A DNA stretch of 34,830 nt from a virus. Under the pieces are notes generated by a model. That model did not search any database. It saw only the letters and a list, made by a program, of their open reading frames with translations, and was not told the DNA's origin. The DNA lies in the IMG/VR virus record IMGVR_UViG_3300037502_002060, positions 1-34,830 of that record; one strand, written 5' to 3'. Both the position numbers and the translations under genes were made by a program. Shown here piece after piece: positions 2,831 through 33,804 of this stretch; position 1 is the first letter of the stretch; each line of letters opens with the position of its first letter.

Positions 2831-3934
2831 TTATGCCGTGTATGTTCCAGATGAAGTAAATGTGTGAATGGTATATCCACCGCTGCTGGTTACTGTGCCG
2901 CCGGTTCCTCGCTGCGATCCTGAGTAACGGATGATTACGATGCCGGAGCCACCAGCGCCAGCAGCGCCAGCATTTGATGTTCCGCCACCAGCGCCACCAC
3001 CACCTGAACCAGTATTGGCGTTAGCATCTCCACCAGCCCCGCCATTTGTTCCGCCAGTACCACCGGCTCCAGCACCACCAGATCCAGCAGTGCCAATAGA
3101 TCCACTACTATAAGCAGAACCTCCGCCGCCTCCGGCTCTAGTTGTTGCGCTTCCATTTATGGATGATGAAACACCATTTCCACCAGCGCCACCATTTTGC
3201 CCAGAACCGTTTGATCCGGCTGCGCCAGCACCGCCGCCACCACCGCCGCCTTGTGCCGGGCCAGATGCGTTACCACCAGCATATCCTTGGTTAGAAGTTC
3301 CAGCGCCGCCACTTAGCCCGTAAGATCCTCCACCGCCTGAGCCGCCACTAGCTCCTGCAAAAGATCCAAATGCGCCTCCGCCGCCACCTCCGGTAGATGT
3401 AATAGAACCAAAAACAGAATTACTACCAGCATTTCCTTGCCCACCACTACCAGCGGATCTACCAGCGCCACCAGCGCCAATTGTTACTGTATATGCGGTT
3501 CCTTCTGAAACACTTAAAACAGATTCAGCAGATCCTCCACCGCCAGAAGATTCACCAGAAACAGATGACCTATACCCCCCAGCACCACCGCCTCCAGCAG
3601 ATGAGTTGCCATTATTTAATCCGCCACCTCCAGCGCCGCCAGCAATTACAAGATATTCAACAGAATATGCTTGCGCCTGAGTAGTCACATCTCTCCATTT
3701 AGTTCCTTCATAAAATTCATATTTGCTGGTGTCTGTGTTGTATCTCACCATCCCAGTACCAGGCGAACCAGGCCGCTGCGCCGTGGTCCCAGCTGGCAGA
3801 TCGAAATAGCTTGTCGCGCTATTCGTCTGTCCGCTCACCGATGTCGGCGTGACCGATACATTGTCCAGCGACGCAGCTCCAATATCACCCGTGGATTCGA
3901 CTACTACTTTTGATAGGTTTCGTGCTTTACTCAT
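2831..3934 (-). CDS. Glycine-rich tail adhesin, paralogue 1
   Basis: This 367-residue protein has an N-terminal structural part (MSKARNLSKVVVE, then PAGTTAQRPGSPGTGMVRYNT and YEFYEGTKWRDVT), as seen in phage fibre-type proteins. A long glycine-rich domain starts at VEYLVIAGGAGGGG and runs with many GGGG blocks to GIVIIRY, followed by a GYTIHTFTSSGTYTA end. Poly-Gly sandwich domains are known in T-even Gp38 adhesins, so host-receptor binding is the likely role. The adjacent gene encodes a paralogue with the same end. AAGGA precedes the ATG at 3934. Confidence 0.75.
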   Translation of the reverse strand: MSKARNLSKVVVESTGDIGAASLDNVSVTPTSVSGQTNSATSYFDLPAGTTAQRPGSPGTGMVRYNTDTSKYEFYEGTKWRDVTTQAQAYSVEYLVIAGGAGGGGLNNGNSSAGGGGAGGYRSSVSGESSGGGGSAESVLSVSEGTAYTVTIGAGGAGRSAGSGGQGNAGSNSVFGSITSTGGGGGGAFGSFAGASGGSGGGGSYGLSGGAGTSNQGYAGGNASGPAQGGGGGGGAGAAGSNGSGQNGGAGGNGVSSSINGSATTRAGGGGGSAYSSGSIGTAGSGGAGAGGTGGTNGGAGGDANANTGSGGGGAGGGTSNAGAAGAGGSGIVIIRYSGSQRGTGGTVTSSGGYTIHTFTSSGTYTA

Positions 3935-3943
3935 ATTGATTCC

Positions 3944-4825
3944 TTATGCCGTGTATGTGCCGGAGCTGGTAAAGGTGTGGATGGTATAGCCGCCGGATGA
4001 TGTGACTGTGCCGCCGGTTCCTTTTTGTGTTCCTAAGTAACGGATGATGACAACACCAGAGCCGCCGCTTCCACCATTTGACCCAGAGCCCCCCCCGCCA
4101 CCGCCAGTATTGGCCGTTCCAGACCCACCAGTATTTGCTCCAGAAACACCATTACCTCCGCCGCCAGTACCACCCACTTGAGCGCCAAGATCCCCTTTAG
4201 CGCCTCCGCCGCCAGCGCGATAAGTGGCGGTTCCGTTAATGCTTGATTGAACACCAATACCACCAACGGCTCCTTGTTGCGAAGTGGCCGTAGCGGGAGT
4301 AGCCCCAGCACCACCGCCAGCACCACCGGAGTTTCCTGAGAAACCAGCACCTCCAGCGTATCCCTGTCCGGTAGTTCCAGCGCCGGGACTTCCGGTTGAT
4401 GAACCACCACCTCCGGAACCGCCTGAACCGCCAGCAAATTCACTATTAAAACTACCGCCACCCCTTCCGCCGCCTGTTGATGTAATAGATCCAAATACAG
4501 AGTTAGAACCTTGTGCTGAACTTGCAGAACCATTAAGCATTCCAGCACCGCCGGCCCCAATAGTTACCGTATATGCGGTTCCATAATTAACGGTCAAAGC
4601 AGATTCGGCAGATGCCCCGCCACCCGATGATTCACCGGTTACAGAACACCGATAACCACCAGCACCACCACCTGAACCATCACCATAGCCTCCTCCGCCG
4701 CCGCCAGCAATTACAAGGTATTGAACAGAATAGTTTTGCAGCGGCCAGTCGCCGCCGCGTAACGCGTTACGGACTTCGTTGAGTTTCCAAATCCCGTCCG
4801 CAGCTGATGTGCTTGGATGTGGCAT
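3944..4825 (-). CDS. Glycine-rich tail adhesin, paralogue 2
   Basis: This 293-residue protein lacks most of the N-terminal structural part of its neighbour. It begins with a short lead (ADGIWKLNEVRNALRGGDW) and goes straight into VQYLVIAGGGGGG. The glycine-rich body, the GTAYTVTIGAGGAG and SVFGSITSTGGG blocks and the last 24 residues match paralogue 1. Its ATG shares a base with the stop of the gene before it (TAATG). A run of eight C at 4089-4096 (G8 in the coding strand) lies in the body and could slip. The tandem pair suggests a duplicated receptor-binding module. Confidence 0.75.
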   Translation of the reverse strand: MPHPSTSAADGIWKLNEVRNALRGGDWPLQNYSVQYLVIAGGGGGGYGDGSGGGAGGYRCSVTGESSGGGASAESALTVNYGTAYTVTIGAGGAGMLNGSASSAQGSNSVFGSITSTGGGRGGGSFNSEFAGGSGGSGGGGSSTGSPGAGTTGQGYAGGAGFSGNSGGAGGGAGATPATATSQQGAVGGIGVQSSINGTATYRAGGGGAKGDLGAQVGGTGGGGNGVSGANTGGSGTANTGGGGGGSGSNGGSGGSGVVIIRYLGTQKGTGGTVTSSGGYTIHTFTSSGTYTA

Positions 4826-5187: not shown

Positions 5188-7521
5188 TTATCCTCCAAAA
5201 ACGATGGCCATTGCGATGGCCTTGCCGGTTGATGCCGCACCAATGTTGGTCCTGGCGTTTGATTGCTGGGTACTATTTAATCCCTGGGATGCCGTGTCGT
5301 ATCGCACAAATCGACCGTCGGCTGCCGTCTTAGTATAGTGATCGGCCAGGGCGAAAGTGCCGTAGGCTACGATGTTTAACTCATCATCGAGCGCCGCAGC
5401 TGATCCCAGGACAATCGATGTTCCATTGCTTGCGGTGTAGTCCGACGAATCCAGGCGCACACCATTGAGATAGACATCAATATATCCGGCGTCATACGCC
5501 AGGCTATTTGCATTACTATCTGCGCCGCTGAATGTTGTCTGCCCGGATGTTGCAATATAACGGAACCGGCCAGTCGTACCATTTACAGTTGATCCAACGG
5601 ACTGCCAAAGCGATCCGTTATAAACCTTCATCTGGTCGATGGTTGTATTGAAATACAAGTCTCCATCCTGGAGCGCGGTTGTGTCATTACGCGTAGATGG
5701 GTCGCTTGCTTTCGGTCCGAGATAAGTGTCAGCGTAGTTTGTAATGTCGGTCACATTCGTCGCGACGGTAGTGACATCAGCTGAGATACCAGCCACGGTT
5801 GTCACATTGCCAGATATACCAGCGACGGTTGTAATGTTTGCCGAATTGCCGGCCACGGTTGTCACATTGGCTGATATACCAGCGACGGTTGTTACATTAG
5901 CTGATATTCCTCCGACGGTATTTACATTCGCAATGTTAGTTGCGACGGTATTTATATTCGCCGAGTTTGTGGCCACCGATGTCACATTGGCCGAGATGCC
6001 AGCAACAGTTGTCACATTGCCAGATATACCAGCGACTGTCGTTACATTCGCGGCGATATTTTCTACGGCCTGAACATCAGCTGAGATTCCAGCGACGGTT
6101 GTAATGTCAGCTGCAATTGGACCCAAAGTATTGACATTGGCGATATTGTTTCCGACCAAATCAATGTTGGTAATGTTATTTGCGCAAACCTCGATTTCCG
6201 ACACGGCTTCGTTTAGGTCATTCGCCGTGGTGATAATTTTATTGATGTCTGTCGCACAAGTATTGACCGACGCAATGTTTGTGGCCACCGTAGTTACATT
6301 GGCGTTATTGCCAGCTACCGCGGTCACATCACTAGATATTCCAGCGACGGTAGTGACATTGCCTGAGATACCAGCGACGGTGGTTACATTGGCCGAGACA
6401 CCAGCGACGGTTGTGACATTAGCTGCAATGCCGGCAACGGTTGTAATGTTTCCAGAGATTCCGCTTACTGTGTTGATGTTGGTCTGGTCCGATGTTGTCG
6501 GAGTGGTTCGACGCCAGGTGGTATTGCCCAGGTCGTAAACCTTCATCACATTATTTGTCGTGTCGAAATAAAGCGCCCCGTCGATCAGAGCATTTCCGTC
6601 GTTATCGAGTGTTGGGTCGCTTGCTTTCGATCCCAGGTAACGGTCATCGAATTGATCGTAGCTTGCAGCTGCGTTTGATGCGCTAGTGGATGCAGAGCTG
6701 GCAGAGCTGGCCGCGTTGCTGGCGCTGGTTGATGCGTTACTTGCGCTAGTCGATGCGCTCGATGCCGAGCTGGCTGCGTTGCTGGCGCTGGTCGATGCGT
6801 TACTTGCGCTAGTCGAAGCAGCTGAAGCGCTGGCCGCAGCTGCGGAAGCGCTGGCAGCAGCTGAAGCTGCGTCCACCACCAGATCAAATTTTGCGTAATC
6901 GGCATTGCTGGTTAAAGGCGTTGTGCCGCTAGAAGTGTGAGCCGTGTTTACTCGGTACACATTGGAATTGCTTCCATCTTTTACCAGGTCGCGAACCGTG
7001 TAAGCAGTACCGGCTGCCCAGTTGCCACGCCAGTTTCCAATATCCTCGCCCACCACCGGGTTGCCGCTGGAATCAAAAGCTAGGGTTTTCCCGGCCCGTG
7101 ATGTCTGAGATGGTAGGACCATATTGATCGACGCGGGATCGGTAACCGGGGCGATGATTGCCCGGCCAAGGGCTTCCGCGTTTTGCTGGGCGAAGATCAC
7201 ATTCTGATCCAGGTCCAGGTTTAGCGACACGGCGGTTAAATCACCACCGGTCACAAAGTCTGTGGATCGCTGGATGTCGCGAGCGCCAACAATTGTCACC
7301 CTGGCGGAAGCCGACGGGGCGGAAGTAAAGGTTATTGATCCGGTTCCGTTTGCGTTAATTGAAACGGTGTAATCCGTGGTCAGGGTTTTAAGGGTGTCAT
7401 TCAGATAGACATCAATATCTGTCTGAGCCAGCACCTCAAATGTAAAGGCGTAAGGACCCGCACCGGCCGACGCGGTGTAAACGACACGACGCACTACGGG
7501 TGAGATTGGAAAATTTGACAT
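5188..7521 (-). CDS. Tail fibre, T7 gp17-type N-terminus
   Basis: This 777-residue protein starts with a domain resembling the T7 fibre attachment domain (about 1-150: VVYTASAGAGPYAFTF, DIDVYLND, FVTGGDLTAVSLNLDLDQ). An Ala/Ser/Asn coiled-coil-like repeat follows (about 217-287), then about 25 copies of a 10-residue repeat of the type NVTTVAGISA (about 345-595). A module DRYLGSKASDPTLDNDG...LYFDTTNNVMKVYD flanks this block on both sides. The C-terminus (DGRFVRYD, SNARTNIGAASTGKAIAMAIVFGG) is the kind often seen ending marine phage fibres. The ATG at 7521 shares a base with the stop of a 16-codon micro-ORF (TAATG). Confidence 0.9.
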   Translation of the reverse strand: MSNFPISPVVRRVVYTASAGAGPYAFTFEVLAQTDIDVYLNDTLKTLTTDYTVSINANGTGSITFTSAPSASARVTIVGARDIQRSTDFVTGGDLTAVSLNLDLDQNVIFAQQNAEALGRAIIAPVTDPASINMVLPSQTSRAGKTLAFDSSGNPVVGEDIGNWRGNWAAGTAYTVRDLVKDGSNSNVYRVNTAHTSSGTTPLTSNADYAKFDLVVDAASAAASASAAAASASAASTSASNASTSASNAASSASSASTSASNASTSASNAASSASSASTSASNAAASYDQFDDRYLGSKASDPTLDNDGNALIDGALYFDTTNNVMKVYDLGNTTWRRTTPTTSDQTNINTVSGISGNITTVAGIAANVTTVAGVSANVTTVAGISGNVTTVAGISSDVTAVAGNNANVTTVATNIASVNTCATDINKIITTANDLNEAVSEIEVCANNITNIDLVGNNIANVNTLGPIAADITTVAGISADVQAVENIAANVTTVAGISGNVTTVAGISANVTSVATNSANINTVATNIANVNTVGGISANVTTVAGISANVTTVAGNSANITTVAGISGNVTTVAGISADVTTVATNVTDITNYADTYLGPKASDPSTRNDTTALQDGDLYFNTTIDQMKVYNGSLWQSVGSTVNGTTGRFRYIATSGQTTFSGADSNANSLAYDAGYIDVYLNGVRLDSSDYTASNGTSIVLGSAAALDDELNIVAYGTFALADHYTKTAADGRFVRYDTASQGLNSTQQSNARTNIGAASTGKAIAMAIVFGG
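5740..6490. repeat. Tandem 30-bp repeats encoding fibre decapeptides
   Basis: On the plus strand, units such as CCAGCGACGGTTGTTACATT recur about every 30 bp. They encode the 10-residue fibre repeats on the minus strand. Units differ at many third positions, so the array is old or under selection at the protein level. Being in frame, expansion or contraction would change fibre length by 10 residues at a time. Confidence 0.8.
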
Positions 7522-7571
7522 TATTTTGCCCCTACGAATTTATAAACTATTATTGAAGAATTTGCCATCAT
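7521..7571 (-). CDS. 16-codon micro-ORF coupling the ejection gene to the tail fibre gene
   Basis: An ATG at 7571 overlaps the stop of the upstream 831-residue gene (ATGA), with AAGGAG just upstream. The frame reads MMANSSIIVYKFVGAK and its TAA shares a base with the fibre ATG (TAATG). Both junction types are those used by proven-size genes in this genome. It may be a translated leader that delivers ribosomes to the fibre start, or a remnant. No function is suggested by the peptide itself. Confidence 0.5.
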   Translation of the reverse strand: MMANSSIIVYKFVGAK

Positions 7572-10063
7572 TTTCTCCTTGGCGGTGGCTCCGCCATAAT
7601 TGCCTCAAAATCCGGAGCGCGGTCCGGGGTTGTGTCACCAGGTTCCCACCAATAGCGTTGTCCGGTTTCTCGTCTGTAACGCGCTTCGAGTTCTCGCATT
7701 CGCTGGCGAGCGTCCGGATCACCCCATATTTGCAAGCGATCAAGAATCAATCGCTCTAGCCCTAGTCTTAAATACCAGATCGATGAACCAGGAGTGTACC
7801 TTCCGGTATAGCTAATCAGCTCCCGGACAAAATGCGTATCTTTTCCGGTGGCCAGCTCCTGGAGATTGCCAATAGTTAGGCGGCGCGTATCGTCCAGGAA
7901 TCCCACTACGGGTCCAGCCACGGTTTGTTCTAAGCCACCACCAAATCGATTGACATCGTTAAATAGGAAATCACCTAAGATTCCCAGGCCGCCGCCCTGG
8001 AGCATTGCAGCTCCCCAGAATTCCGGGGTTTGCATAGTTCTGGGATCGCGCCCTTTGGTAATCTCTTTCAGCTGCATTGCAAGTGCGCCGAATAATGTGG
8101 TCGATATAATCAGGTCCGCAAAATATAATCCGCGCTTTTGAATACTTTCTTGGTTTACTGCGCGCATGACATGAGTATTCAGAAGCGTTACCGGGAAATT
8201 TTTATACATAGCAAATGACCGGGATAATTCACCGATCAAAGTACCTGGGCGCGATTCACCGACCAACATCACGCGGCCCCGGACCGAGCTGCTGGGGACG
8301 GCAAATTCCGTCTCGGTCTGAATCATCTCTAGGAATTTCGTAGCAAGACGGTCGGCCTGGCCAGCTGGTAGTCCTTCCATCAAGCTGATCTCTTCAGGCC
8401 GTAGGAAGCGGCTGCCTTCATACTCATAGAGCTGCGCGCCACGAAGTCGATCCCAGTTGCCCTCTCCGAAGCCATAGCGGTTCAGGGTTTCCTGGAGCGG
8501 CTTATCCAGGTCCTTAAACTTCTTGCCGATGTTGTCTGCCACATACCCCATAAACTCCATGCCGAACGCCCAACGGCCAGCCTGGGTCCAGGGTGATAGT
8601 CCGGTAATCCGCATCACCGTATCGCTTACGCGCTGGGTAATTTCAGGACCGGTGACATCACCGACAAATCGAGCTTGCGCCGCAGCCAAGCTGGTCCAGC
8701 TCTCAGCGATTAGGCCCAGGCGAGACGCCAGGCGTCCGCGCTCATCGACGCCGACCGGCATAATGTTTTTAATGATTCGCTTGACCACATCAGCTGCGGG
8801 TATTCCCGAAGTCTGAGCTGCGATCCGCTGAAAGTTCACATCGGTTATAGCTGACACGGCAGCTGCTCCGAGCTGCGCCGCCTGGAGAATCTGCCTGGTT
8901 CCGGCAAAGGTCCTGGCCACTACGCCATCGACCGGGGACATGGTGGACCCATTAAGGATCGCGTACATTGAATCGAACATCCCCAGCTGGCTGCGAGCTT
9001 TATCCAGGAACCGCCCTTCCGGATTATTTGCTTCACGAATGTTGGCGTCTTTCAGCACCGTCTGGTGGATAAACCGAACCGTCGCATTAGGATTAGGCCC
9101 TAGTATTTCCATCATGGAAATGTCCCTGGCCATTCCTTCCAGGTGATTGACCATGATTGCAAACGGTTCCGGATTGCCAAATCGTTCCTGGTACTCAAGC
9201 CAGGAATCGGCATTTTTGAATGACAAGAATCGGTGATCCTGGCGGCGTCCAGCTAGTGACCGGCCACCACCAGCTCCAGATGGTTTGACCTTGTTCCAGC
9301 CTTCCGTCGCAATTGTGTCGAATACCTGGTCGAGTACGAATTCGAGCTGGTCGCGGGTAAACGGCAGTCCGGTTTTCTCGTCCACCATCTTTTCCGGCGC
9401 AAGCCTGTCGCGAATAAAATTCTTCCATTCGTCCCGGCCGGCTTTGCGTACCTGGAGCGAATCGTGAGCTTGTGGCATTCCCCAGTCTTTGCGCTTTGGA
9501 ATCGATCCGCCGGCCTGGTTAAACCTGGTCCTGGCGTAATCAGCTGCGGTGGACCAGGATTGCGCCAGCTCTTTAGCTACTGCGCTGCCGGTGTCCTCGC
9601 CGAATACTTCACGCACCAGGTCTTTTGCGGTGGCCTTATTGCCCAGCGCTCCTGTTGCGCCGCGGCGTCTAAAGGTGGCCAGCACATCATCCATCTTGGA
9701 ATAGATTTGTCCCAGGACGGCTTTGCGCCTGGCTTCCACATTCGAGTATTTAGCAAACTCGTCTCGGTCTAGTAACGCCTGGGCTGCTTTGCCCAGGTCT
9801 TGGCCATTAGCGTAGCGCTGGAGATTAAAACTAATCTCTTGCCAGTTTCTTACCTGGAGAAGTTTGACCCGGCGGCGCTCAATGGCCTCGGCTTTTAATG
9901 CGTCAAATGTTGCCCGGCCGGCCTGGATCTCTGCTTCAGCTGGAGAGAGCTTGGCCCGGTATTCGGCTTCCAGCTCATCAAATAATCCGCGAGCTTGTCC
10001 GGCTTGCTCTTTTGTGAGCTTGCCTTCTTTTTCGCCGTTGATAATACATTCGCGGAAGCTCAT
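7568..10063 (-). CDS. Large internal virion (ejection-type) protein, 831 aa
   Basis: This 831-residue, mostly helical protein lies third in a block of three large genes between the tail tube and the fibre, where T7-like phages keep their internal core/ejection proteins. The N-terminal 150 residues are charged and coiled-coil-like. Hydrophobic stretches occur mid-protein and at about LYFADLIISTTLFGALAMQL. The C-terminus (PGSSIWYLRLGLERLILDRLQIW, then YRRETGQRYWWEPGD) is a recurring ending I know from proteins of this type. I see no clear lysozyme or transglycosylase motif. Its ATG overlaps the stop of the preceding gene (ATGA). Confidence 0.7.
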   Translation of the reverse strand: MSFRECIINGEKEGKLTKEQAGQARGLFDELEAEYRAKLSPAEAEIQAGRATFDALKAEAIERRRVKLLQVRNWQEISFNLQRYANGQDLGKAAQALLDRDEFAKYSNVEARRKAVLGQIYSKMDDVLATFRRRGATGALGNKATAKDLVREVFGEDTGSAVAKELAQSWSTAADYARTRFNQAGGSIPKRKDWGMPQAHDSLQVRKAGRDEWKNFIRDRLAPEKMVDEKTGLPFTRDQLEFVLDQVFDTIATEGWNKVKPSGAGGGRSLAGRRQDHRFLSFKNADSWLEYQERFGNPEPFAIMVNHLEGMARDISMMEILGPNPNATVRFIHQTVLKDANIREANNPEGRFLDKARSQLGMFDSMYAILNGSTMSPVDGVVARTFAGTRQILQAAQLGAAAVSAITDVNFQRIAAQTSGIPAADVVKRIIKNIMPVGVDERGRLASRLGLIAESWTSLAAAQARFVGDVTGPEITQRVSDTVMRITGLSPWTQAGRWAFGMEFMGYVADNIGKKFKDLDKPLQETLNRYGFGEGNWDRLRGAQLYEYEGSRFLRPEEISLMEGLPAGQADRLATKFLEMIQTETEFAVPSSSVRGRVMLVGESRPGTLIGELSRSFAMYKNFPVTLLNTHVMRAVNQESIQKRGLYFADLIISTTLFGALAMQLKEITKGRDPRTMQTPEFWGAAMLQGGGLGILGDFLFNDVNRFGGGLEQTVAGPVVGFLDDTRRLTIGNLQELATGKDTHFVRELISYTGRYTPGSSIWYLRLGLERLILDRLQIWGDPDARQRMRELEARYRRETGQRYWWEPGDTTPDRAPDFEAIMAEPPPRRK

Positions 10064-13000
10064 TTAACGCACCCCACCAGGCGATCCAACATTGTGTCAT
10101 CTTGCTTAAACTCTTCCATCATCTGGCGAACGGTCATGGTTTCCGCAACGCGCTCACCAGTAGCTGCATCGATGCGCTCACCCACCGGAATCTCCAAATC
10201 CATTAAGACTGGATCTCCTTCGATTTCGCCAAATTCGCGGCCCGTCGCTGTTTCCGGCGCTGAATGTATCTGTCCAGGGCCTTCGATTCCGCCGCGTCGT
10301 AGTCGTAAGCTGACCCCTTCCAGTAGCTGGCCGGATTCGTCTGTGACGGGGATGGGAGCGCCCCTTGCGCCTGAGTTGTCGATCGTCGCGTAGCCATCTA
10401 ATCCACCTTTCTGTTTTAATGCTTCGTATGTCCGCGTCGGAGAATCACCTATGCCGCGGAAATAATCCGGGTTTACTAGGCGTCCGGTTTCAATAAAGCG
10501 GCCGATCATGCGGACATAAGCAGTATCGGTCGGGACCGTCATGTTAATTACACCGACGCGGTATCCGTCCTCTTTCAAGTCGCTAATTAAGCGCTCGATT
10601 GAATCAAGGTTTTTACCAACCTTCGGCAAAACAAGATTGTCACCATTATCAATTGCTCGCTCCAGGACCATGTTGATAATATCCTGGGCCTCTTCGTGTA
10701 CGGCATGAGCGCCGACACCATCACCGTATTCTGGCAGCGTCTTTTTGGCTTCATCGCCATCAATGATTGCTGCGCCGCGAGCTTGTGCAATGCGATCAGC
10801 AATTGTGGATTTTCCAGCAGCTGGTGGCCCCAGGATGATTGTTGCCTGGCGGTCCTGTAATACATTGCCTTCGCGGTAGGGTACGCGATCATCCGACCAC
10901 GCCAGGCGCTTTGCCTGTTCGTAAAGTCTGGATACTGCTTCATCATACCCTTTAATTGATTGGCCATCGAATACAAATTCGCGGTCCCGCATCCAGTTCT
11001 CGGACAAATACCCTGGCGATAAATGCGTCTCAGGGATCGTTCTTGCCCTCTCTATGGCGCTGATTACTGCCGGGTGTGCCTCTATCTCCTGGGTCGTAGC
11101 GCCCCGGTCTAGGACCGATTTAAGGTCTTGGCGCTGCACCTGATCCGGGTTCATTCCTTCCCGTGGCGCTTCAGCTGGTAGCTTGCTGCGCAAATCATCT
11201 TCGAGCTGCTCGGCCTGGCGGGTCGCACCTTGTGACCCAGGCCCGGCATCGAATAGGTTTAGCTCGTCTGCGCCTGGCTCTGCGCTGCGATTGACTTGCG
11301 CCGCAGCTGCGAAATCGCCGCGATCTCCGCCATTTGGAATCCTTTCGTAAGTGCCGTCCTCAATCGCTCTTCGGACGCTTTCGGTAAAGTCGCGGATAAC
11401 AGTTTCGGTTTTGCTTCCGCCGCTTGCTTTCCACTCCTGGGCCGCCCTGGTGAGAGCGTCAGAGATTGGCCCTCGGACATTGGCGTTAGCTTGGATGATT
11501 GCAATGGCTTTGCCATAAATTTCCTCCTTTTCCTGGTTTGAGAGTTTGGCCAATGTATTGCCAGCCTCTTCGATTTCTTCGGCATTGCGAACCAGGGTCG
11601 CAAACAGATCCCGGTCCTTACGCATTTCTTTGATTGCTTTATCCAGGATTTTTGCGCGCTCCAGGAATAAGCTTTCGGCCAGCACCTCATCGCCAAATAA
11701 TCCACCCTGGTCATCGACGCGCTGAACGAATCCAGCTTCACGCGCCTGGCGAACAATCTGCTCTGCCTGGACCATGTTAGCTGGCTCCAGGCGGCGCAAT
11801 AGATTTAATGTGGCCAGCTGCTGCGCTTCGTCCGTAATGTAGCGCCCGACTAGGGAACCAAAGTTCGGCGGGACTACATCATTGACCACGGCCATAAATG
11901 CTTTGTTCGTTAGCCTGGATAGATCCTGGGCCTGGCGTACAAATACGGACCTGGGCGGTAGCGTGTTAATCAGCTCCGGCGCATCGCGCAATATCTTGGC
12001 TGCGTCGATTAGGGTTCCGGTTCCTTCGGCAAGGTTTTTACCAGCTGCCATAGCGCGAGCTTCAGCTGGAGAAAACCCATCAGCTTCACGAATTTTGAAT
12101 GCGTAGAGCTGAATGTCTTGCGCCGGATCAGATTCCTGTAAGCGCTTGGCCAATGCCAGGCGCTGGTGGCCATCAGCAATAAATGTCCGGCCATCGGCAA
12201 ATTCATACACGATTGCCGTGTTAGCTTTTACCGGGTCCCATTTTGTTACATCTTGCAATCGCTCGGTCACGCCCATGACATCGCCGCCAGCCTTAAACTG
12301 GAAAAGCTCGGCATCGACCATGAGCTGATTCGGCTTGTAAGCAAATATCTGGCCGTTAAGATTGTCGTGAAAATGAATGTCCCGGATTGCATCAATAGCT
12401 GAAGCTGGTGGGTTTGGAACCACTTTTGTCGCAGCTCCTTCAGCGACTGCGGTATAGCTTTGTGTCAGCCTGGCGTTATGCTCCAGGTCACCGGCATCAT
12501 CTTTCAGCACATTGCCCTGGCTAGAGATGTTGTCAATTTCGTCCATCTCTTTTAGCAGCTTGACATCCGGATCTAGCTCGTAGGGCCGGCCTTCCATTCT
12601 GGCCCTGGCTTTTCCTAAAGCTTCAATGCCATCCGCAATTTGGCGGCGCGTGAATTGTAGAGCTGGTTTTGCTCCCATAATGCCGGCGGTGATCGCGCTT
12701 GCGCCGATACCAGCGACTGCGACATTCGTAAAGAATGTCTTGTAGTCATACGGAAGCCCTAGCGTTTTATACCAATCAGAGACTTCAACCTGGGTAATAG
12801 CTTCAATTCCCATGTTAAGCACACCTTGGCGCAAAGATTCCTTAAGAATTCCATAGTTCTTCCCCCTGGTGAAATAAATATCTGCGGCGGTGATTGCTAT
12901 GTTCGGCGCATCAGTAAGCATTGCAGCTGCTGATCCACCAAACTCACCGAGCCATCCGCCTAAAGTTTGGCGGCCGGCCACATCAGCTGAGACATCAAGC

Positions 13001-13386
13001 GATTTAATCGCGTTTTTCTTAGCTCTTTCAAATATCGTTTCCGAAGATTCATTGACCAAATCCGGAAACATATCCTGGCGGTCGCGAATATATTTGAAAA
13101 TCTCTTCGCTTACCCGGTCGTATTGTTTCTGTCCAAAACCCTGAGTGTCTGAAGCGCCCAGGTAGTTTGCTGGGTTTATAAATTGCTTGCCGGTCTTTTC
13201 TTTAACCTGGCGAATAATTGGGTCCCATTGCTCCTTTAGAACAATTCCGCGGGAATCGGTCCTGGATGTTTTGAGCTGCGATTCATAGGCAGCACTAAAG
13301 TTTTCGACAAAGCCAGTATCCTCACCGCCACCGGCCGGCTTGAACGGTAGGGCGGTTAGATTAGGTTCGTCAAATACGAAGCTCAT
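10060..13386 (-). CDS. Large ejection-position polyvalent protein with ParB-like and zeta-toxin-like kinase domains
   Basis: This 1108-residue protein sits between two other ejection-type genes, joined by ATGA overlaps on both sides. Residues 1-250 are helical with hydrophobic stretches (about 150-172, 220-240). Residues 355-470 carry a ParB/Srx-type signature, FADGRTFIADGHQRLALAKRL, after VDAELFQFK. Residues about 845-1005 look like a zeta-toxin/UDP-sugar kinase domain: ATIILGPPAAGKST (Walker A 853-860), AAIIDGDEAKKTLPEY, HEEAQDIINMVLERA, and a later GRFIETGRLVNPDYF. Multi-domain fusions delivered with phage or conjugative DNA are known as polyvalent proteins. The exact substrates here are unknown. 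The Walker A residues appear intact. Confidence 0.75.
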   Translation of the reverse strand: MSFVFDEPNLTALPFKPAGGGEDTGFVENFSAAYESQLKTSRTDSRGIVLKEQWDPIIRQVKEKTGKQFINPANYLGASDTQGFGQKQYDRVSEEIFKYIRDRQDMFPDLVNESSETIFERAKKNAIKSLDVSADVAGRQTLGGWLGEFGGSAAAMLTDAPNIAITAADIYFTRGKNYGILKESLRQGVLNMGIEAITQVEVSDWYKTLGLPYDYKTFFTNVAVAGIGASAITAGIMGAKPALQFTRRQIADGIEALGKARARMEGRPYELDPDVKLLKEMDEIDNISSQGNVLKDDAGDLEHNARLTQSYTAVAEGAATKVVPNPPASAIDAIRDIHFHDNLNGQIFAYKPNQLMVDAELFQFKAGGDVMGVTERLQDVTKWDPVKANTAIVYEFADGRTFIADGHQRLALAKRLQESDPAQDIQLYAFKIREADGFSPAEARAMAAGKNLAEGTGTLIDAAKILRDAPELINTLPPRSVFVRQAQDLSRLTNKAFMAVVNDVVPPNFGSLVGRYITDEAQQLATLNLLRRLEPANMVQAEQIVRQAREAGFVQRVDDQGGLFGDEVLAESLFLERAKILDKAIKEMRKDRDLFATLVRNAEEIEEAGNTLAKLSNQEKEEIYGKAIAIIQANANVRGPISDALTRAAQEWKASGGSKTETVIRDFTESVRRAIEDGTYERIPNGGDRGDFAAAAQVNRSAEPGADELNLFDAGPGSQGATRQAEQLEDDLRSKLPAEAPREGMNPDQVQRQDLKSVLDRGATTQEIEAHPAVISAIERARTIPETHLSPGYLSENWMRDREFVFDGQSIKGYDEAVSRLYEQAKRLAWSDDRVPYREGNVLQDRQATIILGPPAAGKSTIADRIAQARGAAIIDGDEAKKTLPEYGDGVGAHAVHEEAQDIINMVLERAIDNGDNLVLPKVGKNLDSIERLISDLKEDGYRVGVINMTVPTDTAYVRMIGRFIETGRLVNPDYFRGIGDSPTRTYEALKQKGGLDGYATIDNSGARGAPIPVTDESGQLLEGVSLRLRRGGIEGPGQIHSAPETATGREFGEIEGDPVLMDLEIPVGERIDAATGERVAETMTVRQMMEEFKQDDTMLDRLVGCVK

Positions 13387-15620
13387 CTGGTATCCCTTGA
13401 TTTAACGCGGTCGGCCAGGATTCGGAAGTCCACCACCAGGGGAGACTTGTCCTTATAGGTAAATGCCAATGGGCTAGATTTTCCGCGATAGTCCTCAAAA
13501 TAAAGGACGGCTCGATTGTCATCGATAAATGCTGGGTAACCTTTTCTTAACCGATCAATCGTAAACTGACGGCCTTTATCATCTTCCGGGTTTCCACCAG
13601 CAGCTGCTACAAAATCATCATAGGTAGCGCGATTGATAATTCTGCTGAAATCGTTTTGCGGAATGTTATTAGGAATCGGTGTACGAATTCCGCGATATTC
13701 AATGATGCCGCCATATAGCTTTCCGTCTTTTCCTTTGATTGCTCCAGCAGCTTCCTGGAATGCTGCCTGGTACATATCACTATCAAATACCGTTGCGCCT
13801 GAAGTTATAGAGCGCTGCGTGTAAATTGCATCAGCTACTTTAAGAATTGCAGCTCTGGTGTTAGGGGCGAATGCGTAAGCGCCGCCAAGTTGATCTGCAA
13901 TCTGATTGCGTTTAGTAGCTGCATCGCCGGTCCCTTCAAATACTTTATTGCCAGCCTGGAGCAGCTTCATACCATTTAAGGCGTCGGTCAATGTCACCGG
14001 GTTTGCGCCGCTGATTTTTAGCCCTCCAATATGGGCCAGCTCTGGCGAGAATTTTGAAACCTCGGACATAGCATTGCCAGCTTCTTTTCCGAACGCGGAC
14101 ACAAATACATCTAAAAATCCAATCTGCTGCGGAACGCTACCGCTTACAAATATATTGCTCACGGCAGATGCTTCATCATTTGATAAAAATTTTGGCTTAA
14201 TAGAGTGAACCGCCGCAAAAGATTTTGATTGAGTGATTCGCTCTCTGATCTGAGAAGTTACTTCTTCAGCTGATCCGCCAAAATTAAGTGTCTTGACTGG
14301 CGCATATCCAGTCCGGTTCATGCGAGAAACCGGATCTTTTTCCAGGTCTGAGCTGAGAGAAGTTAAAGACTTCCTGGCCACATCGATAAGCATTGCCTGT
14401 TCTAGCGTCGCGCCCTTGGCGGTTTGCTGCTCGGCATTGCGAATCCAATCTCCGAGCTGGACGCTACTCATCTTGCTAAATGCTATTGATTGGTCGCGCA
14501 GAACGCCAAGATAGTTTGCCTGGCGAGCTACATCGTCATTGGCCGGAAGGCCAAGTGCGCGTGTGCGTCGCTGAAGGTCGCTCACTACACCGGCATCAGG
14601 TATCGATCCCAGGGAGAAAATGCGCAGCGTCTCGCTAATATCGCCTTTTAGCTCGCTTCTAAGCGCTCGGCCTTCAGCTGCCCTGGCGCGCAGATCAGCT
14701 TCAAATTCATTGGTTAGGGCATTGAGACGGCCAGGATCGATTCCGCGGGTAAGGCGGTCGGTTTTGATTGGCTTTCCCTCTGCGTCAAACAAATCACCGA
14801 CCGGGCCTTTTGCCAGGTCGGCGCTCATTGCTTTTAGAAATGCAGCTTTGTCTGGGGCCTTTTCGTAATCCTTGCGCAGCCTTGCTATGTGGTAGTTCTC
14901 CAGGGTTTGGGTGACAACCTTTTCCCTGGCTATGGGATCTGTTTCAACCGTTTGCGCATAGGTGCGCAGCGCTCCAAGCTCAGTAAACAATACCCCTTCG
15001 GCGTTGGCCATGCCACTAATGGCCAGGCGCACAATGTCATCGGATCGCTGGGCTATGCCGGCAATACCCCTGGCTTGTGTTTCTTTCGCGACGCGTGTGT
15101 TGTAGGTTTCAGAAATCTCTAGGAATGCCGTGTCTTTTACACGGTCCAATCCAGCTGCGATCCGTCCGCGGAGCTTCGGATCTAGCAGCCCGGTTAGGGA
15201 TTCCAGGCCATCACGGACATCTGCGGTTTCCGCCAGGAAGTTGATTGGGTCTGCATTCGGGTCGTTTTTGTAGCGCGATACTTTGTCAGCAATCAGCTTG
15301 CGGCCCTGGTTTTCCAGCTCCAAGGCAAGCAGCTCATTAGCCTGGTCGTAGGCGGCGCGGTCATATATGGTTAGCGGTTTCTTGCCACCGGCTTGCTGCA
15401 ATACACCTTTTGCCTGTTCAACATCGGTCACCGACGCCCGGCCTTCCGTCTCAGCCTGTTCAGCTCCAATCTTTGTGGCGAAATCCACTACACGATCGAT
15501 AACCTTTTGCTGGGCAGCCTGGACATTGCGTGTCTCACGCATTAAAGGCGAGAAGTCAGCTGCCCTATAAGGGTCAATCTGGACGCCTCGTTGCTTAAAT
15601 ACTGGAAGTCTTTCTGCCAT
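13383..15620 (-). CDS. Internal virion/ejection protein, 745 aa
   Basis: This 745-residue protein is almost wholly helical and charged, without signal peptide or obvious enzymatic motif. It starts MAERLPVFKQRGVQIDPYRAADFSPLM. It lies directly after the small internal virion protein and before two larger ejection-type proteins, a position equivalent to T7 gp15. Assignment is by position, size and composition, not by a strong family motif. Start at 15620, 2 bases after the preceding stop; its own stop overlaps the next start (ATGA). Confidence 0.65.
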   Translation of the reverse strand: MAERLPVFKQRGVQIDPYRAADFSPLMRETRNVQAAQQKVIDRVVDFATKIGAEQAETEGRASVTDVEQAKGVLQQAGGKKPLTIYDRAAYDQANELLALELENQGRKLIADKVSRYKNDPNADPINFLAETADVRDGLESLTGLLDPKLRGRIAAGLDRVKDTAFLEISETYNTRVAKETQARGIAGIAQRSDDIVRLAISGMANAEGVLFTELGALRTYAQTVETDPIAREKVVTQTLENYHIARLRKDYEKAPDKAAFLKAMSADLAKGPVGDLFDAEGKPIKTDRLTRGIDPGRLNALTNEFEADLRARAAEGRALRSELKGDISETLRIFSLGSIPDAGVVSDLQRRTRALGLPANDDVARQANYLGVLRDQSIAFSKMSSVQLGDWIRNAEQQTAKGATLEQAMLIDVARKSLTSLSSDLEKDPVSRMNRTGYAPVKTLNFGGSAEEVTSQIRERITQSKSFAAVHSIKPKFLSNDEASAVSNIFVSGSVPQQIGFLDVFVSAFGKEAGNAMSEVSKFSPELAHIGGLKISGANPVTLTDALNGMKLLQAGNKVFEGTGDAATKRNQIADQLGGAYAFAPNTRAAILKVADAIYTQRSITSGATVFDSDMYQAAFQEAAGAIKGKDGKLYGGIIEYRGIRTPIPNNIPQNDFSRIINRATYDDFVAAAGGNPEDDKGRQFTIDRLRKGYPAFIDDNRAVLYFEDYRGKSSPLAFTYKDKSPLVVDFRILADRVKSRDTR

Positions 15621-15622
15621 GA

Positions 15623-16096
15623 TTAGCTCGTTTTAGGAAGCATTGAGAATTTACTTCCAGGACCTCCGGCCATGCTATACGACAGACCAGCTCCGCCGAC
15701 TGTACCTATTGCCTGGTATAAGCCAGCTTGTTTTGCAGCTGCTCCAGAAGCTCGGTAGATATTCGCCTGGAACCCAGCCGACGCAGATGCAAGCTTGGCG
15801 TTTTCCTGGGATATATCGAATTCGGTGTAGCCCTCGCGCAGCGCGTAGGTTTGTAAGCTACCGGCAGATCCGCTCATGGGATCAATAGACCCAGCTGCGC
15901 CGCGAGCATTGATGGTCGAAATGGTGCGCTGGATCGATGTTAGGGTTTTCAATCCTTCCTGGCGAGCGCGAATAGCCTCGGTCCGGCCCTGGATTTCTAC
16001 TTGTTGAGCTTGTGCCTGGTATAGCTTTTCCTGGGTTCTACCAGCCTGGTATTGACCATAAGCTCCGATGACTGCTGCTGCGACGGCTAATTCCAT
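15623..16096 (-). CDS. Small internal virion protein (T7 gp14-like)
   Basis: This 157-residue protein has a short hydrophobic N-terminus (MELAVAAAVIGAYGQYQAG), a long Gln/Ala/Arg helical region (YQAQAQQVEIQGRTEAIRARQ), an INARGAAGSIDP turn and a Gly/Ser-rich end. This is the usual make-up of T7 gp14-type internal virion proteins, which form part of the periplasm-spanning conduit during DNA ejection. It follows the tubular tail protein B gene directly, as in related phages. Start at 16096 follows the previous stop by 2 bases. Confidence 0.75.
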   Translation of the reverse strand: MELAVAAAVIGAYGQYQAGRTQEKLYQAQAQQVEIQGRTEAIRARQEGLKTLTSIQRTISTINARGAAGSIDPMSGSAGSLQTYALREGYTEFDISQENAKLASASAGFQANIYRASGAAAKQAGLYQAIGTVGGAGLSYSMAGGPGSKFSMLPKTS

Positions 16097-16098
16097 GA

Positions 16099-18078
16099 TT
16101 ATTGTCCTATCGAAACCTTGTATTCAAGATTCAGTAAGTTTAATTTCAATGGGATCGGCTGCGTTACAGTTATCGCTCCCTCATCGTTAAAACCTAAAAG
16201 TGGTCCAACGCGCTTAACGCCAGTATATTCCTCGATAGCTTGATCGAGAACACTTACGCCAAATTGACGAAACTCAATCTGATTATCGTTAATTGTCATT
16301 GATTGCGTTTTATACAAATCGGCATTTATTTCAATAATGCGTTTTTTGAATCCACGAATAGTGCCGCTGGCCAGCTTTGCCTCGACCGGCATGGTTTTAA
16401 TTTCAATGTTGTAGTTCAGACCTACTTGCCAGGAGCTGGCAGCTGCGGTCGCAAATGTCACGGTTCCGCCGCCTGGAACGGTTTGGTCGGGTTCCAAAAC
16501 ACCATCACGAATAATCTTGACTGATTTAGCGACCAGGTGAGACATCGATGCGCTTGCAGCTCCAGAAGTTGCAAACTTCGCAGAATCTAAACTAAGGTCA
16601 CGGTTAAATGCTTCGACATAGAATGCAGCTGATCCGTTAATGACGCGGCGCACCACAACATAAGTGGTATCAACATCCACGGCCACGGCCTTAAACAATC
16701 CGTCGGTAGTCAGCTCGGATGGCGCAATCACACTTTGTGAGCGCAGCAAAGCGATATTTAGAATCGTCCCGTCATCGCCATTGACCACGAAAAGCCGGTC
16801 GGTATCGTCGGTCGATGTTGCGCGTTTGAGTGCCATGTCCACCGGATTCTTGACCAGGTGGCCACATAGCAGCGTCACATTGTTCGCGACATAGGTGGCT
16901 TCCGTGTCGGTAAATAGCAGCTCATTGATGCTCTTGCCCTGGCGCTGCAAAAATAGGGTTCCTGAATCCAGGCCAATTACCGGGAAGTTGTTTTTTGAGC
17001 CGATCCTGGTGCTAGTGCGGATGATAAAGTTTGACGGCGTAATCGGTTCAAGTGTCGCCTGGGGTACATAGAATTCACCGCCAATGCTAAAAATCTGAAG
17101 GTCCCGGCCAGAGTAAATATCCGTAATCGTATTGAGTTGCGATGTATCGATGGTCGCTTCAAGCGCCTCATCATCCAATCCCTCCGCGTATTCAAAATTA
17201 AAGAAATCATTGACACGCGAACCCCATACCGTGGTCGGTCTATTCTTTGATCCACCAAAATATAAACGGCCTTCATGGAATGTGACGGATCGTGGCCAAC
17301 CTTTTGTGGATGACCAGGTAGCTTCATATCCGCTTTCCTTGCTCCAATTTCCCTGGGCGATATTGCTAGTATCAAAAAACGGTATTTCCGTAATCGCTTT
17401 GACGCTATTGTTACTAATCCATTGAACAATCTTTGCCCGGCCTTGTGGCTCCGCATTGATATATTGGCCAACATCACCAGCTACAAAATACGAATTCTGA
17501 GAAGTCAGCGTCACATTTCCGCTAGTGGCTGATGGTGTAAGGTGGCCAACGGCCGGAGTTGTTTCGGTTAAAGTAAATGCGTACTGTGGGATATTGTCGA
17601 AAGTAATGTTCGATACAGTCCAGCTGGCGTCATTTGCGCCGCGGACAAATTTAACCGGCTGCATATCCTCCTGAACGAAAATAATCGTGTCAGCTGATTG
17701 TGCGAATTTAAGACCTGGAATAATCGCAGCGGTGAATGCAGCTACCGCAAGATAATTATTGCCGGTGGCATTTATATTTGTGACCAGAGCTTTATTCTTA
17801 AAAATATAAACTCGTCCAGGAACCACGGCGAACATATAAGAATCCGTGACATTAAACTGGAACGGAATCAACCGGACCGCCTGGGCTGCCAGGCCGGCAT
17901 CCAGGGTCGAGATATATTGCAGCCCTTCACGGCGTCGCGCTCCGCCCTGGGGCTGGATCACGACATTCGTTGCTTTTTGAAGTCCGTTGTAATACTGATT
18001 TAAGTCAATCCGGCCACGCAATAGTGGGTCAATCTCACCGACCACAAAATTCGTTTGGATGAGAACGACGCGGCTCAT
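16099..18078 (-). CDS. Tail tubular protein B / nozzle (T7 gp12-like)
   Basis: This 659-residue protein opens with the recognisable nozzle-protein start: QTNFVVGEIDPLLRGRIDLNQYYNGL, then NVVIQPQGGARRREGLQYI. A beta-rich body follows with VTFHEGRLYFGGSKN and GRDLQIFSIGGEFYV. T7 gp12 homologues form the tail nozzle below the adaptor ring. Its ATG shares one base with the stop of the tubular protein A gene (TAATG), the usual A-B pairing. Length is in the family range. Confidence 0.9.
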   Translation of the reverse strand: MSRVVLIQTNFVVGEIDPLLRGRIDLNQYYNGLQKATNVVIQPQGGARRREGLQYISTLDAGLAAQAVRLIPFQFNVTDSYMFAVVPGRVYIFKNKALVTNINATGNNYLAVAAFTAAIIPGLKFAQSADTIIFVQEDMQPVKFVRGANDASWTVSNITFDNIPQYAFTLTETTPAVGHLTPSATSGNVTLTSQNSYFVAGDVGQYINAEPQGRAKIVQWISNNSVKAITEIPFFDTSNIAQGNWSKESGYEATWSSTKGWPRSVTFHEGRLYFGGSKNRPTTVWGSRVNDFFNFEYAEGLDDEALEATIDTSQLNTITDIYSGRDLQIFSIGGEFYVPQATLEPITPSNFIIRTSTRIGSKNNFPVIGLDSGTLFLQRQGKSINELLFTDTEATYVANNVTLLCGHLVKNPVDMALKRATSTDDTDRLFVVNGDDGTILNIALLRSQSVIAPSELTTDGLFKAVAVDVDTTYVVVRRVINGSAAFYVEAFNRDLSLDSAKFATSGAASASMSHLVAKSVKIIRDGVLEPDQTVPGGGTVTFATAAASSWQVGLNYNIEIKTMPVEAKLASGTIRGFKKRIIEINADLYKTQSMTINDNQIEFRQFGVSVLDQAIEEYTGVKRVGPLLGFNDEGAITVTQPIPLKLNLLNLEYKVSIGQ

Positions 18079-18704
18079 TACAGTAATCTAACGCTAATCA
18101 ACGGGAATGCGTCGCGGTCATCGAGCGAAATCGACGGACGGCTCTGCGAATCAATGGACATACATTGGCGGAAGTATCCGCCGCGCATATTCTCTTCTGG
18201 CAGTCCAAAAGCCAGGCGCTGATAGTATTCTGCTTTTGTGATCTGGTCGGTCACCGTCTCGGCAAAATTAGCAGCCAAGACATACTTCATCAGGTTCACG
18301 AAAAATGACGGCATTTCGCTCTCAGGTGTCCGATACTGATAATCGATCCAGGCTTCCTCGATGTTTGTTAGCAGCTTGTCTTGCTGCACATCAAATTCAA
18401 CGGTGGACGAAACCCCGACATTCTCATCCGGGAATACGGCTCGAATACCGGCCAGGCGATCACCCGGCAGCTGATAAAGATATTTCCAGCCAAATGCTGG
18501 CGTATCGACCAGGCGAGCTATTTGCGTTTTCTTTAAGGTAAAGGTCCAGGGGTGCATACATAGCACCATGTCCCTAATATCGTCGTACAGTCGATCGCAA
18601 ATCTGAGCTGCGTCGCTTGTCTCCGAAAAAGATGTTAGGGGTTTTGCGCCGAGATAAATGAGCGCATCAGAACAAATTGATAGCTTGGTATCTCCAGCAG
18701 CCAT
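18078..18704 (-). CDS. Tail tubular protein A / adaptor (T7 gp11-like)
   Basis: This 208-residue protein starts with the family pattern (MAAGDTKLSICSDALIYLGAKPLTSF, DAAQICDRLYDDIRDMVL) and has the conserved HPWTFTLKKTQIARL and GWKYLYQLPGDRL segments. It should form the dodecameric ring between portal and nozzle. It lies directly before the nozzle gene. A terminator-like hairpin stands between it and the head genes upstream, so it may be expressed by partial read-through or from its own unseen promoter. Confidence 0.9.
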   Translation of the reverse strand: MAAGDTKLSICSDALIYLGAKPLTSFSETSDAAQICDRLYDDIRDMVLCMHPWTFTLKKTQIARLVDTPAFGWKYLYQLPGDRLAGIRAVFPDENVGVSSTVEFDVQQDKLLTNIEEAWIDYQYRTPESEMPSFFVNLMKYVLAANFAETVTDQITKAEYYQRLAFGLPEENMRGGYFRQCMSIDSQSRPSISLDDRDAFPLISVRLL

Positions 18705-32702: not shown

Positions 32703-32956
32703 GTTTGAGATTGCGCGTAATGAGACGCGCCGAATTCAATCGTGATTCGGTTCGTCCATTGACCGCGATTGTCCTGGCCAGGATTCCTGGCCGGGTTGAG
32801 TACGCGGTCTTTACGGAGATCGATGAGACGCTGCGCAATGGTTACTACTCTCGCGACATGGAGCGGTGCGTCGCGGAGTACGAATCCAGGAAGAGAGTTG
32901 CAGCTAGTCCGTCCGATCCTGGTGCTGAGTTTATTTTTAGGAGGTATTCAGAATGA
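32699..32956 (+). CDS. Hypothetical protein (85 aa)
   Basis: This 85-residue basic protein has RAEFNRDSVRPLTAIVLARIPG, VFTEIDETLRNGYYSRDMERC and a FIFRRYSE end. It is coupled by ATGA to the LPD29 gene before it and to the recombinase after it. I do not recognise a family. The conserved-looking RNGYYSRDMERC stretch could be tested for homologues in other LPD29 loci. Confidence 0.65.
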   Translation: MSLRLRVMRRAEFNRDSVRPLTAIVLARIPGRVEYAVFTEIDETLRNGYYSRDMERCVAEYESRKRVAASPSDPGAEFIFRRYSE

Positions 32957-33794: not shown

Positions 33795-33804
33795 GGAGAT
33801 TGTC

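What the first reader, a model, noticed from the sequence alone, without database searches (positions are those of the whole stretch)
10060..13386. Ejection-position protein fused to a ParB-like motif and a zeta-toxin-like kinase domain
Seen: an 1108-residue gene among three T7-type ejection genes carries DGHQRLALAK in a ParB-like setting (about 355-470) and an intact Walker A GPPAAGKST with zeta-like downstream motifs (about 845-1005). Known: polyvalent proteins delivered with phage or plasmid DNA combine such domains. Inferred: the virion may inject a kinase able to act on nucleotide sugars or another host target, and a ParB-type NTP-binding or nuclease module, at the start of infection. A zeta-like kinase inside a core virion protein would be an unusual early host-takeover or anti-defence device.
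Basis: partly seen in the sequence, partly recalled or inferred. Interest (0 to 1): 0.75.

Follow-up and report, generated by a model that had tools for sequence, protein, structure and literature searches.

The report
Phage ejection protein with swappable effector cassette
An uncultured short-tailed phage carries, inside one of the proteins it probably injects into bacteria, a ParB-like DNA-handling module and a kinase related to zeta toxins, and in closely related phages that kinase is cut out at the same spot and replaced by other toxin-like enzymes or by nothing, which suggests a plug-in slot for host-attacking enzymes.

Summary
Window 10060-13386 (minus strand) encodes 1108 aa with a ParB unit (NTP-binding plus HTH-type DNA-binding domain, residues ~344-552) and an intact zeta-type P-loop kinase (Pfam Zeta_toxin E=6e-18; model pLDDT 92, closest to zeta Z=17.2, PezT, AvrRxo1). 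The gene holds the epsilon15/phiV10 gp16-like ejection position. The new result is comparative. Among 180 non-redundant relatives, N-terminus, ParB chassis and a ~48-aa C-terminal tail are mostly kept, while the slot between (~738-1060) holds a zeta-like kinase, Tas1-like alarmone synthetase, putative RelA-like domain, ADP-ribosyltransferase, PBECR RNase, or nothing. Cargo changes 52 times on the chassis tree. The window is the only zeta carrier in a clade of Tas1-like carriers, and its flanking genes follow that clade: a local cassette swap. Cargo is under purifying selection; no immunity gene is linked. Zeta catalytic residues are invariant, but UDP-GlcNAc contacts are lost (Glu116 to Pro, Thr118 mostly Val), so 'acts on nucleotide sugars' is disfavoured. 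Best reading: an interchangeable, virion-delivered effector on a podoviral ejection protein, a new variant of the polyvalent/MuF-toxin theme. Virion location, injection, activity and substrate remain untested.

The parts
10060..13386 (-). Whole gene: ejection-position polyvalent protein, 1108 aa (P0001)
   Evidence: ORF; Pfam/PHROG hits; synteny
12373..13386 (-). N-terminal ejection/pilot-like region, residues 1-338 (conserved backbone; profile A9)
   Evidence: profile hits 271 of 286 ParB-chassis ORFs and at least 7 ORFs with zeta but no ParB; no detectable similarity to the phiV10 p19 N-terminus
12022..12357 (-). ParB/Srx-type NTP-binding domain, residues ~344-455, with ADGHQR at 404-409 (12160-12177)
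   Evidence: AF2 model; VIA-align Z 8.5 to CTP-bound ParB 7bm8, also Srx Z 5.5-6.8
11731..12021 (-). ParB/Noc-type HTH DNA-binding domain, residues ~456-552
   Evidence: VIA-align Z 9.2 to 4umk, 8.6 to 6y93
11356..11691 (-). Helical segment that closes the conserved chassis, residues ~566-677
   Evidence: AF2 model; conserved in alignment A5
10207..11175 (-). Variable cargo slot, residues ~738-1060
   Evidence: identity to L060 is about 80% just before ~737, background in the slot, and resumes at ~1061
10306..11055 (-). Zeta-like kinase cargo as modelled, residues 778-1027 (Pfam core 848-1004)
10804..10830 (-). Walker A GPPAAGKST, residues 853-861 (K859)
   Evidence: K859 and S860 68/68 in the non-redundant zeta set
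10753..10755 (-). D878, equivalent of the zeta catalytic base D67
   Evidence: 68/68; alignment to 1gvn
10063..10206 (-). Conserved C-terminal tail, residues 1061-1108 (...TVRQMMEEFKQDDTMLDRLVGCVK)
   Evidence: alignment A10; weak profile similarity to the phiV10-type tail, E=1.9e-5, probability 78%
7568..10063 (-). Next gene, epsilon15 gp17-like virion structural protein (phrog_684, E=3e-182)
   Evidence: directly downstream in 123 of 125 testable loci with classified or no cargo
13383..15620 (-). Upstream gene, phiV10 p18-like 'head protein' (phrog_992)
   Evidence: synteny
15623..16096 (-). Internal virion protein (phrog_418)
16099..18704 (-). Tail proteins (phrog_376 at 16099-18078, phrog_394 at 18078-18704)

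Best explanation
The gene is an ejection protein of an epsilon15/phiV10-like podovirus that doubles as a delivery vehicle for an exchangeable effector enzyme. N-terminus, ParB unit and C-terminal tail form the vehicle (inferred roles: packaging and ejection; binding the entering DNA, perhaps gated by an NTP). The cassette between residues ~738 and ~1060 is the payload, here a zeta-fold phosphotransferase. Shown: fold, intact catalytic residues, modular exchange at fixed boundaries, purifying selection, position in the ejection gene cluster, no linked immunity gene. Inferred: made late, packaged and ejected with the genome, the kinase acts in the host cytoplasm at the start of infection, phosphorylating a host nucleotide-like or nucleic-acid target that is probably not UDP-GlcNAc, to weaken the host or blunt a defence. 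The alternatives in the same slot (Tas1-like alarmone synthetase, ART, RNase) do the same job by other chemistry.
For: Zeta fold and residues. ParB unit. Ejection synteny. Slot with unrelated cargo: Tas1-like, ART-PolyVal, PBECR1 RNase, none. 52 cargo changes on the chassis tree, and the window is the only zeta carrier in a 14-row Tas1-like clade with SH-aLRT 100. Neighbours follow that clade: gp17-like 82% versus at most 57% to zeta carriers, tail B 84% versus 57%, head 62% versus 27%. Median dN/dS about 0.16 for zeta cargo, about 0.09-0.11 for Tas1-like. The same zeta subfamily also rides on a portal protein, on a ParB-less version of this protein and on other polyvalent proteins. No room for an immunity gene: the next gene overlaps by 4 nt in nearly all cargo carriers.
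Against: No virion proteomics, no proof of ejection into the cytoplasm, no activity assay. A second zeta substrate class is unproven; the Glu116/Thr118 argument depends on an ungapped profile alignment of one loop. The N-terminus has no detectable similarity to known epsilon15-type ejection proteins, so 'ejection protein' rests on gene order and a weak tail match. Absence of an immunity gene could also mean that the cargo is not toxic.
Confidence: 0.68

Rival explanations
1. The kinase is a true UDP-GlcNAc kinase, as in zeta/PezT, and weakens the cell wall to help DNA entry or lysis (the reading Iyer et al. proposed for zeta-like kinases in mobile elements).
For: Best structural match is zeta (Z 17.2) and PezT (16.3); K46, D67 and R158 equivalents invariant; published proposal in PMC5512222.
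Against: E116 equivalent Pro in 66/67, T118 equivalent Val in 59/67, R120 equivalent not conserved; Thr to Val at that site abolishes PezT toxicity (PMC3062530). Cargo alternatives in the slot (Tas1-like, ART, RNase) do not act on the wall.
Confidence: 0.13
2. The P-loop domain is an ATPase or structural element of the ejection machine itself (for example a DNA-entry motor), not a host-directed effector.
For: It sits inside an ejection-position protein next to a DNA-binding ParB unit.
Against: 34 of 180 relatives have no cargo and many carry unrelated folds at the same spot; the same zeta subfamily is fused to a portal and other scaffolds. Substrate-side features of a kinase are conserved.
Confidence: 0.08
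3. Injected anti-defence or repair enzyme: the kinase modifies a nucleotide signal, NAD-like molecule or RNA end so that host immunity fails, rather than harming the host directly. (A narrower version of the best explanation; the two overlap.)
For: Structural neighbours include polynucleotide kinases (Z about 14) and AvrRxo1 (Z about 15); slot contents are nucleotide- or RNA-directed enzymes; no immunity gene is needed.
Against: No substrate evidence; the Tas1-like and RNase alternatives look more like attack than protection.
Confidence: 0.3
4. MuF-like polymorphic toxin used by lysogens against competitors.
For: Same logic of a head-associated carrier with variable toxin (PMC5576092, PMC12226406); a serine recombinase in the window hints at lysogeny; relatives occur in bacterial genome assemblies.
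Against: [quoted passage not shown] no MuF domain; cargo is followed by a conserved tail rather than forming the C-terminus.
Confidence: 0.1

Closest known systems
Polyvalent proteins of phages and conjugative elements (Iyer et al. 2017, PMC5512222)
   Same: Large late-gene proteins mixing ParB, zeta-like, ART, RelA/SpoT and BECR domains, proposed to be injected with DNA; ParB-chassis homologues of this gene occur inside giant polyvalent proteins (Ruegeria phage 45A6, L003, with LPD38).
   Different: Here one podoviral ejection-position gene keeps head and tail of the protein constant and exchanges a single internal cassette; the ParB unit gives no ddrB-ParB Pfam hit, although L163 does; the zeta fusion discussed there was to MuF and conjugative proteins.
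MuF polymorphic toxins, including Apk2 (p)ppApp synthetases (PMC5576092, PMC12226406)
   Same: Conserved head-associated carrier plus variable toxin (nuclease, ART, RelA-like/(p)ppApp synthetase).
   Different: Different carrier (ParB ejection-position protein, no MuF domain), internal slot with conserved C-terminal tail, no linked immunity gene.
Epsilon15/phiV10-type ejection locus (phiV10 p18-p19-p20)
   Same: Gene order and position; gp17-like neighbour (phrog_684); weak tail similarity.
   Different: phiV10 p19 is 600 aa and showed no similarity to the ParB or kinase region in our comparison; the N-termini are not detectably related.
Zeta toxin / PezT / AvrRxo1 kinases
   Same: Fold, Walker A, catalytic Asp, Arg residues.
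   Different: UDP-GlcNAc-contact residues replaced; no epsilon-type antitoxin; embedded in a virion-locus protein.
Halovirus HCTV-5 gp114 'zeta toxin and ParB nuclease domain protein'
   Same: ParB plus zeta in one phage protein (as annotated), 27% identity over residues 792-1031.
   Different: Zeta lies N-terminal (residues 145-317), beside gpF-like and head protease genes of a 102-kb archaeal tailed virus.

Membership tests
Zeta toxin (Pfam PF06414) fold family | Profile match above curated cut-off and zeta-type P-loop kinase fold | tested here: met
   E=6e-18, 65 bits versus cut-off 22.3; Z 17.2 to 1gvn
Zeta/PezT UDP-GlcNAc kinases | Catalytic Lys, Asp base and Arg residues | tested here: met
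   K859 and D878 68/68, R963 and R969 67/67
Zeta/PezT UDP-GlcNAc kinases | UDP-GlcNAc contacts (Thr118, Arg120; neighbouring Glu116) | tested here: not met
   T118 equivalent Val 59/67, E116 equivalent Pro 66/67, R120 equivalent variable (PMC3062530)
Zeta toxin-antitoxin systems | Linked antitoxin gene | tested here: not met
   neighbouring genes overlap by 4 nt on both sides; the gp17-like gene follows with no room for a gene in 58 of 59 zeta carriers
ParB/Srx superfamily | ParB N-domain fold with invariant active-site Arg | tested here: met
   Z 8.5 to 7bm8, R409 invariant in 44 sequences
ParB/Srx superfamily | NTP binding/hydrolysis or nuclease activity | not testable with these tools
   needs biochemistry
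ddrB-like ParB of polyvalent proteins (PF18763) | Profile match | tested here: inconclusive
   no hit at E up to 1, while L163 hits at 7e-36; more distant kinship not excluded
Polyvalent proteins | Two or more biochemically unrelated domains in one protein of a mobile element, in late/virion gene context | tested here: met
   ParB plus zeta; between phrog_992 and phrog_684 genes
Polyvalent proteins | Injected with DNA | not testable with these tools
   needs virion proteomics and a translocation assay
MuF polymorphic toxins | N-terminal MuF domain | tested here: not met
   no MuF match in the Pfam scan at E up to 1
MuF polymorphic toxins | Downstream immunity ORF | tested here: not met
Epsilon15-type ejection proteins | Position between gp15-like and gp17-like genes | tested here: met
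Epsilon15-type ejection proteins | Sequence homology to epsilon15/phiV10 gp16-like protein | tested here: inconclusive
   tail E=1.9e-5, probability 78%; N-terminus no match

The most novel reading that the evidence does not exclude
A widespread class of short-tailed phages of (mostly) alphaproteobacteria carries a dedicated plug-in slot in an ejection protein: a ParB-type DNA-binding, NTP-gated carrier rides in with the genome and delivers interchangeable effector enzymes (zeta-fold kinase with a new substrate, Tas1-like alarmone synthetase, ART, RNase) straight into the host at the start of infection, without any immunity gene.
Probability: 0.5. Interest if true: 0.78.

Novelty: new variant of a known kind. 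Interest (0 to 1): 0.63.

Why it matters
If true, podoviruses use their ejection apparatus as a modular effector-delivery device, much as secretion systems use polymorphic toxins. Natural variants that differ mainly in the cassette (zeta, Tas1-like or none on the same chassis) make it directly testable what virion-delivered enzymes do in the first minutes of infection. It would also give a probable new substrate class for zeta-fold kinases and a ParB-type DNA-binding module working in genome ejection.

Tried and rejected
Ubiquitin-like hits of residues 418-460 in the PDB sequence search: summed sub-threshold repeats of poly-ubiquitin chains, rejected. T7-type homology for the cluster: best matches are epsilon15/phiV10-like, not T7. 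Homology of the N-terminal 340 residues to phiV10-type p19: none found. Relationship between the zeta and Tas1-like cargo: none. Solved-structure match for the ParB chassis by sequence profile: none, found only by fold. Solved-structure match for the third Rel-like cargo group (A7): none; kept only as putative from profile similarity to A4 (E=2e-6). Assembly chimera as cause of the window's odd cargo: judged unlikely, since both flanks and both neighbouring genes belong to the Tas1-like clade and the frame is intact. Literature searches for zeta or polymorphic toxin domains in podoviral ejection proteins in the held library found none; most subscription papers are not held. The share of zeta among cargos is inflated by one scan that used zeta as query. 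Known-phage proteomics for a close relative was not found; supplementary tables of the phiGT1 paper could not be read. DNA search of the flank in named phages found only one short match, so no close named relative exists in that collection.
Full report
OBSERVATION. The ORF at 10060-13386 exists exactly as stated, on the minus strand, 1108 aa. Its stop and start overlap the neighbouring genes by four bases, so it is part of one tightly coupled late operon. Pfam finds Zeta_toxin at residues 848-1004 with E=6e-18, and PHROGs finds the ParB region (352-675) in phrog_10691 (7e-65) and in the C-terminal part of a large portal family. The neighbours are phrog_418 internal virion protein, phrog_992 head protein and phrog_684 virion structural protein, with tail genes, capsid, portal and terminase further upstream in transcription. 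The record is a virus contig of 34,830 bases.

FOLDS. An AlphaFold2 model of residues 778-1027 built on 20 relatives has mean pLDDT 91.8. Its closest solved structures are zeta of epsilon/zeta (Z 17.2, 2.8 A, 199 aa), PezT (16.3) and AvrRxo1 (15.2), then polynucleotide kinases near 14. The chassis model of residues 339-690 (pLDDT 79.9) matches ParB and Noc: model residues 7-117 fit the CTP-bound ParB N-domain (Z 8.5, 2.9 A) and 119-214 fit the ParB DNA-binding domain (Z 9.2, 3.3 A). So this is a two-domain ParB unit and not only a motif. The Z values are moderate, but the two hits are adjacent, in the right order, and ParB proteins fill the top ranks. The ADGHQR motif is invariant in 44 relatives.

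THE SLOT. The nearest relative first found, L001, is collinear at both ends but has no kinase; its slot matches Tas1, a (p)ppApp synthetase effector (phmmer E=1.5e-6, profile E=6e-12). Scanning viral contigs with the chassis and with the kinase, and bacterial genomes with the chassis, gave 286 loci, 180 with distinct chassis. Nearly all share the N-terminal region (271 of 286) and, by definition, the ParB chassis; most cargo-bearing and cargo-free podoviral members keep the tail. The slot was classed as zeta in 69, Tas1-like in 46 (two profile groups; the second matches Tas1 at 1.5e-16), a putative third Rel-like group in 7 (profile evidence only), empty in 34, other in 17, cut by contig ends in 7. 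'Other' includes ADP-ribosyltransferases (ART-PolyVal 2.7e-11 in L266, weaker in L069), PBECR1 RNases (1.7e-9 in L099) and giant polyvalent proteins. Zeta and Tas1-like profiles share no similarity. Counts are of what was sampled; the zeta share is inflated by the kinase-based scan.

EXCHANGE. On a maximum-likelihood tree of the chassis (173 rows, quick search) cargo type changes at least 52 times; starred branches alone force 17 changes for zeta and 17 for the larger Tas1-like group. The window sits in a 14-row clade (SH-aLRT 100) of which the other 13 carry Tas1-like cargo. Against L060, identity is about 80% over the ParB chassis to residue ~737, falls to background, and returns at ~1061. 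The downstream gp17-like protein is 82% identical to that clade and at most 57% to any zeta carrier; tail B 84% versus 57%; head protein 62% versus 27%. The cassette alone has been exchanged. The kinase subfamily also occurs in a ParB-less version of the same protein (L156, L160, L164, L166, L170, L176, L189), fused behind a portal protein (Phage_portal_3 E=9e-89 in L183), and in other polyvalent proteins. A domain that moves among virion-type carriers while the carriers persist without it is best read as payload.

FUNCTION. Purifying selection acts on the cargo (median dN/dS 0.155 for zeta, 0.11 and 0.09 for the Tas1-like groups). In the zeta cargos the Walker lysine, the catalytic aspartate and two arginines are invariant, so phosphotransfer is expected. 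The residues with which zeta holds UDP-GlcNAc are not kept: Pro instead of Glu116 in 66/67, Val instead of Thr118 in 59/67, no conserved Arg120 (structure and mutants in PMC3062530). Substrate is therefore likely to be something else; it was not identified. Genes abut with a 4-nt overlap in cargo carriers: only one of 59 zeta carriers and none of 43 Tas1-like carriers has room for an immunity gene downstream. MuF toxins, the closest functional parallel, usually have one (PMC5576092). A late-made, packaged effector that first meets its substrate in the next host would not need it; a non-toxic enzyme would not either.

COMPARISON. The elements are known singly: polyvalent proteins with ParB, ART, RelA/SpoT, BECR and zeta-like domains (PMC5512222), MuF toxins including (p)ppApp synthetases (PMC12226406), and a halovirus protein annotated with both zeta and ParB. 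What I did not find in the held literature is a podoviral ejection-position gene with a fixed internal slot whose cargo is exchanged this often. T7 gp16, an ejection protein with a cytoplasmic DNA-binding part, shows that such proteins can reach the host cytoplasm (review PMC8954989), but homology to T7 gp16 was not shown.

LIMITS. Virion presence, ejection, host, toxicity and substrate are untested. Relatives in genome assemblies are mostly alphaproteobacterial, so such a host is likely but not shown for the window. The swap in the window's own lineage rests on one metagenome contig.

Noticed in passing
window 32953-33639 (+) and 33721-34779 (+): Serine recombinase (Resolvase E=1.5e-29; invertase/integrase PHROGs) beside a RecE-like exonuclease, on the strand opposite the late genes: possible temperate lifestyle or invertible element.
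   Followed up: no
window 2831-3934 and 3944-4825 (-): Two adjacent paralogues with Gly_rich_2 domains (phrog_2295), next to the tail-fibre gene 5188-7521 with a weak CBM_5_12 hit.
   Followed up: no
L183 4378-6738; L191 4315-6735: Phage_portal_3 portal proteins with a C-terminal zeta-like kinase of the same subfamily.
   Followed up: partly
L156, L160, L164, L166, L170, L176, L189: Same N-terminus and zeta cargo but no ParB unit, still directly before the gp17-like gene; the C-terminal tail is also found in six of the seven, while in L160 the tail-profile hit lies inside the zeta region: the ParB unit is itself dispensable.
   Followed up: partly
L036, L081, L086 slot region: By eye, an extra ParB-like stretch (such as LLDGNSTYAIA in L036) ahead of the Tas1-like domain in the cassette.
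   Followed up: no
L019, L024, L025 slot region: About 170 unidentified residues inserted ahead of the Tas1-like domain (seen in L019; L024 and L025 have the same slot length).
   Followed up: no
L254 11066-11737: A cassette of about 224 aa with no Pfam match, a candidate unknown effector.
   Followed up: no
L041, L063, L080: Third cargo group with HIRDSxRFKT and WGxRI motifs, only profile-level kinship to the Tas1-like group.
   Followed up: partly
loci without cargo: 8 of 34 cargo-free loci have 120 nt or more between the chassis gene and the gp17-like gene, unlike cargo carriers.
   Followed up: no
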